DNA of 64,000 nucleotides. It comes from Anaerolineales bacterium. GTDB lineage: Bacteria > Chloroflexota > Anaerolineae > Anaerolineales > Villigracilaceae. A program made the position numbers and the translations under genes. Positions 47,019 to 47,362 of this stretch are shown here, in pieces (position 1 is the first letter of the stretch; every line of letters begins with the position of its first letter). The stretch is from contig JADGEO010000005.1 of NCBI GenBank assembly GCA_016744335.1, forward strand, positions 39,036 through 103,035. The letters are read 5' to 3'. A model generated the notes under the pieces. That model ran no database searches. It was not told where the DNA came from and saw only the letters and a program-made list of their open reading frames with translations.

Positions 47019-47362
47019 TTATCCATAGTTATAATATGTATATTAAATTAGTCGTCTTAGTAGGGGGTGTGGATGATGGGGATAAGCTGAAAAGCACGCC
47101 AAAAAACACCCTATTTGCTGTGCACGAAGCAATTTATCCCCCATATACAGGGGAGTGGAGAGAAAAGAATATGGGGATAAGTTTTGGGATGAATTAAGGA
47201 TAAAAAAAGGCTCTTTTTGATAAAAAGAGCCTTTTTCTATATATGGGGTGTTTTTATACATAGCCCATATATACAGAAAAAGTTTTCAGAAATTATCCAC
47301 AGATATTATTCTTTATCTACAGTTTATGCGCTGTTATCCACAGTTTTCTCCACTTTGGATAA
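47019..47362. other. oriC: Candidate replication origin (oriC): cluster of DnaA-box-like 9-mers
   Basis: TTATCCACA at 47293 and 47334; TTATCTACA at 47313; TTATCCATA at 47019; TTATCCCCC at 47134; reverse-strand TTATCCCCA at 47077 and 47172; reverse-strand TTATCCAAA at 47354. Confidence 0.6.
47204..47236. terminator. Perfect hairpin with A/T flanks inside the candidate origin region
   Basis: AAAAAGGCTCTTTTT-GAT-AAAAAGAGCCTTTTT. Confidence 0.7.

What the first reader, a model, noticed from the sequence alone, without database searches (positions are those of the whole stretch)
47019..47362. Putative chromosomal oriC without an adjacent dnaA
About eight DnaA-box-like sites in 344 bp on both strands, including two perfect TTATCCACA and one TTATCTACA within 50 bp, in an AT-rich gene-poor gap between msrQ and a DsbA-family gene. 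parS-like sites lie 4 kb upstream and dnaN 9.5 kb downstream. dnaA is not in the window and the gap directly upstream of dnaN has no such boxes, so this would be an unusual origin arrangement.
Basis: partly seen in the sequence, partly recalled or inferred. Interest (0 to 1): 0.85.

Follow-up and report, generated by a model that had tools for sequence, protein, structure and literature searches.

The report
Chromosome replication origin that moved
This stretch is very probably the place where this Chloroflexota bacterium starts copying its chromosome, and comparison with sister species shows that the DNA-opening part of the start site has moved to a new spot between two genes, leaving a fragment of the old start site behind about 49 thousand bases away.

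Summary
In detail: eight sites within one mismatch of TTATCCACA lie in 344 bp, a cluster score of 23 against at most 9 in simulated DNA. Window 47014-47085 is a complete origin-unwinding module: AT-rich tract, TAGTCGTCTTAGTAG (DnaA-trio-like), GGGG, two abutting DnaA boxes. A pattern for this module occurs once in the whole genome, here. Scanned blind through GTDB genomes, a near-identical pattern hits dnaA/dnaN neighbourhoods in 95 of 120 loci and, in Chloroflexota, a spoVS neighbourhood. In the complete relative G016 strand asymmetry puts the origin at that spoVS locus, not at dnaA. In this genome and two sister species the spoVS locus has lost the unwinding module (about 210 bp deleted here) and keeps only a three-box array. 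The module sits instead in the msrQ-dsbA gap, 94-96% identical to the sister species while the rest of the gap is 41-73%. All three parS sites of the genome lie 4 kb away. Best reading: the functional oriC, relocated from the ancestral site. An oriC apart from dnaA is not new; a natural relocation with a conserved half-origin left behind is unusual. No replication measurement was possible.

The parts
47014..47085 (+). Origin-unwinding module (BUS-like): AT-rich tract, trio-like repeats, GC spacer and two abutting DnaA boxes
   Evidence: Pattern TAGTAGGVVVTGTKGANNNKGKGGA occurs once in the genome; 94-96% identical to G002/G008 against 41-73% in the rest of the gap
47019..47027 (+). DnaA box-like TTATCCATA at the outer edge of the AT-rich tract
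47028..47048 (.). AT-rich tract, candidate duplex-unwinding element
   Evidence: 40-mer at 47011-47050 ties for least stable in the 64-kb window by nearest-neighbour energy
47049..47063 (+). DnaA-trio-like repeats TAG TCG TCT TAG TAG (read outward from the boxes TAG TAG TCT TCG TAG)
   Evidence: motif definition PMC8287927
47064..47067 (+). GC spacer GGGG between trios and boxes
47068..47076 (-). DnaA box TCATCCACA
47077..47085 (-). DnaA box TTATCCCCA, abutting the previous one
47172..47180 (-). DnaA box TTATCCCCA, 95 bp from the module; spacing kept in relatives (93-105 bp)
47293..47342 (+). Three-box array TTATCCACA / TTATCTACA / TTATCCACA at 20 and 21 bp spacing
   Evidence: the same spacing in nearly all family genomes
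47354..47362 (-). DnaA box-like TTATCCAAA
42922..43326 (.). Three perfect parS sites (42922, 43232, 43311), the only ones in the genome
46358..46975 (+). msrQ, left neighbour
   Evidence: NF003831 over cut-off
47496..48224 (+). DsbA-fold thiol-disulfide lipoprotein (Rcas_1661 family), right neighbour
56834..57967 (+). dnaN
   Evidence: TIGR00663 over cut-off

Best explanation
Window 47014-47362 is the functional chromosomal oriC of this Anaerolineales-like bacterium. DnaA would bind the two abutting boxes at 47068-47085, be guided across the GGGG spacer onto the trio-like repeats at 47049-47063, and open the AT-rich tract at 47028-47048 for helicase loading; the box at 47172 and the three-box array at 47293-47342 would help recruit and order DnaA. 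The family's ancestral origin lies between a spoVS gene and a predicted nucleotidyltransferase gene (here C90:37.4-37.7 kb). In the lineage of this genome, G002 and G008 the unwinding module arose anew between msrQ and dsbA, most likely by copying, and was deleted at the old site, which keeps only its three-box array. Shown: the sequences, their conservation and their positions. Inferred: activity, the copying step, and what the left-over array does (most likely DnaA binding that titrates or tunes initiation).
For: Cluster far above chance. Unwinding-module pattern once per genome in all nine genomes of the genus, with no match of the reversed pattern in 119 genomes. Blind scan of GTDB genomes with a near-identical pattern: 95 of 120 loci carry dnaA or dnaN, 22 carry the spoVS/nucleotidyltransferase neighbourhood, 3 neither. 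Complete relative G016: GC+TA skew puts the origin at 500-520 kb (0 of 100 permutations), with the module at 505.3 kb and dnaA at 3.07 Mb. G090: skew origin 0.22-1.02 Mb, module 0.556 Mb, dnaA 1.486 Mb (1 of 500). Old site: spoVS-to-array distance about 243 bp here and 233 bp in G002 against about 450 bp in G003, G004 and G007, the missing part being the module; G008's old site also lacks it. New site conserved in G002 and G008 only, and in G008 the surrounding gene order is otherwise that of G005. Module block conserved at 94-96%. All parS of the genome are 4 kb away.
Against: No replication data. The strict published trio rule (three or more consecutive NAN triplets) is not met here: two TAG, then TCT and TCG, then TAG; the same holds for the whole genus, while about half of the matched relatives meet it. 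The box array of the new site is degraded in G002 and G008. Strand-skew switch within this contig is inconclusive. In G071 the skew estimate (180-300 kb) misses the module (515 kb), with weak significance. The nucleotidyltransferase gene tree does not group the three carriers, which needs a reversal or gene exchange involving G004 and perhaps G003, although the GlyS tree does group them.
Confidence: 0.8

Rival explanations
1. Split origin: the unwinding module at 47014-47085 and the three-box array left at the old site 49 kb away act together, or both regions are needed for normal initiation.
For: The array at the old site stays intact and conserved in own, G002 and G008, while the new site's array is degraded in G002 and G008.
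Against: The separation differs strongly (13 kb in G008, 49 kb here), and this genome has its own array with canonical spacing beside the module. Known bipartite origins are split only by about the length of dnaA (general knowledge).
Confidence: 0.1
2. The old site by spoVS is still the functional oriC, and the window cluster is a secondary DnaA-binding locus (datA/DARS-like).
For: The old site is the syntenic family origin and keeps a perfect three-box array.
Against: It has lost the trio/box module that the other six genus members keep at that place, and the only module is in the window. A titration site needs no AT-rich tract and trios conserved at 94-96%.
Confidence: 0.08
3. Two alternative origins, both usable.
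For: A more distant relative, G065, carries two apparently complete origins (module plus array plus spoVS) 60.7 kb apart on one contig.
Against: The old site here lacks the module.
Confidence: 0.03
4. Integrated plasmid or mobile-element origin, or an assembly error.
For: The assembly is a 134-contig draft.
Against: The same arrangement is found in three separate assemblies at the same gene junction; the module matches the genus's own origin most closely. No replication-initiator or integrase gene was identified among the flanking genes examined.
Confidence: 0.02

Closest known systems
Basal origin-unwinding system (BUS) of Bacillus subtilis oriC and its relatives (PMC8287927, PMC6669920)
   Same: Tandem DnaA boxes, short GC spacer, 3'-GAT-5' repeats and an AT-rich stretch in the same order and polarity
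   Different: Trio run interrupted (TAG TAG TCT TCG TAG); not next to dnaA; bracketed by msrQ and dsbA
Ancestral family origin at the spoVS locus (for example G005, G012, G016, G035)
   Same: Module, box at about 95 bp, array spaced 20/21 bp, same polarity
   Different: Here the whole layout sits in the msrQ-dsbA gap and the spoVS locus keeps only the array
Bipartite oriC (Helicobacter pylori, Clostridioides difficile; PMC8235120, PMC7561715)
   Same: Box clusters at two places
   Different: There the parts lie either side of dnaA; here they are 13-49 kb apart with no dnaA between them
Putative double origins in Dehalobacter sp. CF and others (PMC4403523)
   Same: Two candidate clusters on one chromosome, one of them close to partition elements
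   Different: There 150 kb or more apart in the cases compared here, and predicted from single genomes; here sister species show where the module was before

Membership tests
Bacterial chromosomal oriC | Cluster of DnaA boxes above chance | tested here: met
   Score 23 against at most 9 simulated
Bacterial chromosomal oriC | AT-rich, easily opened element beside the boxes | tested here: met
   40-mer at 47011 ties for least stable in the window
Bacterial chromosomal oriC | Strand-asymmetry switch at the site | tested here: inconclusive
   Own genome is fragmented and the contig test is inconclusive; met at the homologous module in G016 and, coarsely, G090; missed in G071
Bacterial chromosomal oriC | Proximity to parS | tested here: met
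   All three parS of the genome are 4 kb away
Bacterial chromosomal oriC | Initiates replication (coverage peak, autonomous replication) | not testable with these tools
   No reads or experiments available
BUS unwinding module | One or two DnaA boxes with a spacer of at most 16 bp to the trios | tested here: met
   Two abutting boxes, 4-bp GGGG spacer
BUS unwinding module | At least three consecutive NAN trios (rule of PMC8287927) | tested here: not met
   Two consecutive TAG, then TCT TCG, then TAG; homologous modules in about half of the matched family members meet it, so 'works like a BUS' stands although strict membership fails
BUS unwinding module | DnaA-dependent strand opening | not testable with these tools
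   Needs purified DnaA
datA/DARS-type DnaA-regulating locus | DnaA boxes without an unwinding module | tested here: not met
   The window cluster has the module; the left-over array at C90:37.6 kb fits this better

The most novel reading that the evidence does not exclude
A natural split of a bacterial origin: the DNA-opening half has moved 13-49 kb away while the DnaA-array half stays, conserved, at the old site, and the two cooperate or the left-over half has become a dedicated initiation regulator.
Probability: 0.2. Interest if true: 0.85.

Novelty: new variant of a known kind. Interest (0 to 1): 0.62.

Why it matters
Where an origin sits is usually conserved within a genus, and how one moves is hard to see. 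Here sister species show before (origin whole at spoVS: G003, G004, G005 and others) and after (module at msrQ-dsbA, array left behind: this genome, G002, G008), and G065 shows what a two-origin state could look like. It gives a natural test of which parts of an origin must stay together. It also supplies a one-motif way of finding origins in draft genomes of this Chloroflexota family, for which the literature searches found no oriC study.

Tried and rejected
Plain cumulative skew on the contig is dominated by gene direction. A fourfold-site TA test between the two sites was inconclusive. Skew in G071 was weak and did not hit the module. dnaA as origin neighbour was rejected: no cluster at dnaA in nearly all family members tested (G030 is an exception). 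I first took the double clusters reported in G018 and G022 for two origins; they are one origin cut by the scoring window. The 346-aa protein beside the old site was considered as a polymerase III subunit because it neighbours a tmk-like gene; its predicted fold is a nucleotidyltransferase. Literature searches found no oriC study of Chloroflexota.

Full report
Observation. The window is G000:C90:39036-103035, the right end of a 103-kb contig of a 3.62-Mb, 134-contig assembly. Eight sites with at most one mismatch to TTATCCACA lie in 47019-47362, two of them perfect. With sites of up to two mismatches the cluster scores 23; the best of 60 Markov-simulated windows scored 8, or 9 with the gap's own base composition. 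The genome has 63 perfect boxes (20 for the reversed pattern), but only two places have perfect boxes within 100 bp of each other: this one, and C90:37628/37649, which is 1.4 kb outside the window. The neighbours msrQ, DsbA-like gene and dnaN are as described. There are three perfect parS sites at 42922-43326, the only ones in the genome. dnaA is on another contig without a box cluster.

Anatomy. Reading the + strand: TTATCCATA (47019), an AT-rich tract, TAGTCGTCTTAGTAG (47049-47063), GGGG, then two abutting inverted boxes TGTGGATGA TGGGGATAA (47068-47085), a further inverted box 95 bp on (47172), and a direct triple at 47293, 47313 and 47334. This is the order and polarity of the basal unwinding system of Bacillus subtilis: trios 3'-GAT-5', spacer, DnaA boxes (PMC8287927). 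Read outward from the boxes the trios are TAG TAG TCT TCG TAG, so the strict rule of three consecutive NAN triplets is not met; about half of the homologous modules in the family meet it.

The motif as an origin signature. The pattern TAGTAGGVVVTGTKGANNNKGKGGA occurs exactly once in this genome, at the finding, and once in each of the other eight genomes of the genus; the reversed pattern never occurs in 119 genomes. So the motif marks origins, and in this lineage it normally sits beside spoVS. In other families of the order, such as those of G044 and G051, a similar module lies within about 1.5 kb of dnaA, so the separation from dnaA probably arose within the order.

Skew in complete relatives. 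In G016 (one contig, 4.404 Mb), 50 sampled 20-kb stretches fit an origin at 500-520 kb by GC+TA skew (500-560 kb by TA alone; 0 of 100 permutations). The module is at 505.3 kb beside spoVS, dnaN at 482.5 kb, dnaA at 3.07 Mb. In G090 (one contig, 4.128 Mb) the skew origin lies in 0.22-1.02 Mb, with the module at 0.556 and dnaA at 1.486 Mb (1 of 500). In G071 the signal is weak and points to 180-300 kb, against the module at 515 kb.

Two sites in this genome. The family origin lies between spoVS and a 338-346-aa conserved protein followed by a tmk-like gene. In this genome that place (L009:18330-18680) has the triple TTCTCCACA/TTATCCACA/TTATCCACA with the same 20/21-bp spacing, but the stretch between spoVS and the triple is about 243 bp (233 bp in G002) instead of about 450 bp in G003, G004 and G007; alignment shows that the module is what is missing. 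G008's old site likewise has the triple and no module, with a different extent of loss, and its contig ends just beyond. In these same three genomes, and in no other of the 36 relatives searched, the msrQ-dsbA gap carries the module. Between this genome and G002 or G008 the block 47014-47085 is 96% and 94% identical, while the other parts of the gap are 41-73% identical, which indicates purifying selection on the module at the new place. In G008 the gene order msrP-msrQ-dsbA-dNK-...-tmk-nucleotidyltransferase-origin is otherwise that of G005, whose whole origin is at the old site, so only the module has changed place, by 13.4 kb. In this genome the two sites are 48.7 kb apart.

History. The GlyS tree groups this genome, G002 and G008 (85/87; G004 has no GlyS match); the nucleotidyltransferase tree puts G004, and more weakly G003, inside the group. 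One gain of the new site, with a return or gene exchange in G004 and perhaps G003, or a two-origin ancestor resolved differently in different species, would explain this. A two-origin state does exist in the family: G065 has two apparently complete origins, each with its own spoVS, 60.7 kb apart in opposite orientation on one contig.

Mechanism. By analogy with B. subtilis and H. pylori (PMC8287927), DnaA on the paired boxes would assemble onto the trio strand and open the AT-rich tract; the 40-mer at 47011 ties for the least stable in the window. The array would recruit further DnaA. None of this was measured here. The left-over array at the old site is conserved in all three species and is probably still bound by DnaA; titration or timing control is my guess.

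Verdict. The new point is the relocation, seen against sister species, with a conserved half-origin left behind.

Noticed in passing
L009:18573-18622 (C90:37608-37657, 1.4 kb left of the window): Conserved three-box DnaA array at the ancestral origin site, without the unwinding module, between spoVS and a nucleotidyltransferase-fold gene.
   Followed up: yes
L218 and L229 (G065:C21:25818 and 86526): Two apparently complete origins, each with its own spoVS, 60.7 kb apart in opposite orientation on one contig of a relative.
   Followed up: partly
L009:18683-19720: Uncharacterised protein of 338-346 aa conserved beside the family's ancestral origin, no Pfam or NCBIfam match; predicted structure (pLDDT 91) resembles nucleotidyltransferases of the kanamycin nucleotidyltransferase type, with a GS...DID motif.
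   Followed up: partly
51203-53622: TIR-domain protein followed by a 445-aa protein without NCBIfam or Pfam match in a low-GC stretch (about 37%) near the origin; possibly a defence gene pair.
   Followed up: no
L090:9418-9727 (G003:C102): A second box triple without the unwinding module in a sister species, 21 kb from its origin; a possible DnaA-regulating site.
   Followed up: no
L035 (G030 dnaA locus, around 2998): A same-family genome with a DnaA-box cluster beside dnaA, unlike the rest of the family.
   Followed up: no
47496-48224 and homologues in G005, G008, G044, G048: Homologues of the DsbA-like gene in several relatives have one in-frame TGA, which fits selenocysteine in the Rcas_1661 (seleno)lipoprotein family.
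   Followed up: no
42262-44017: The parS sites lie beside two SdpI-family paralogues, a position shared with several relatives.
   Followed up: partly
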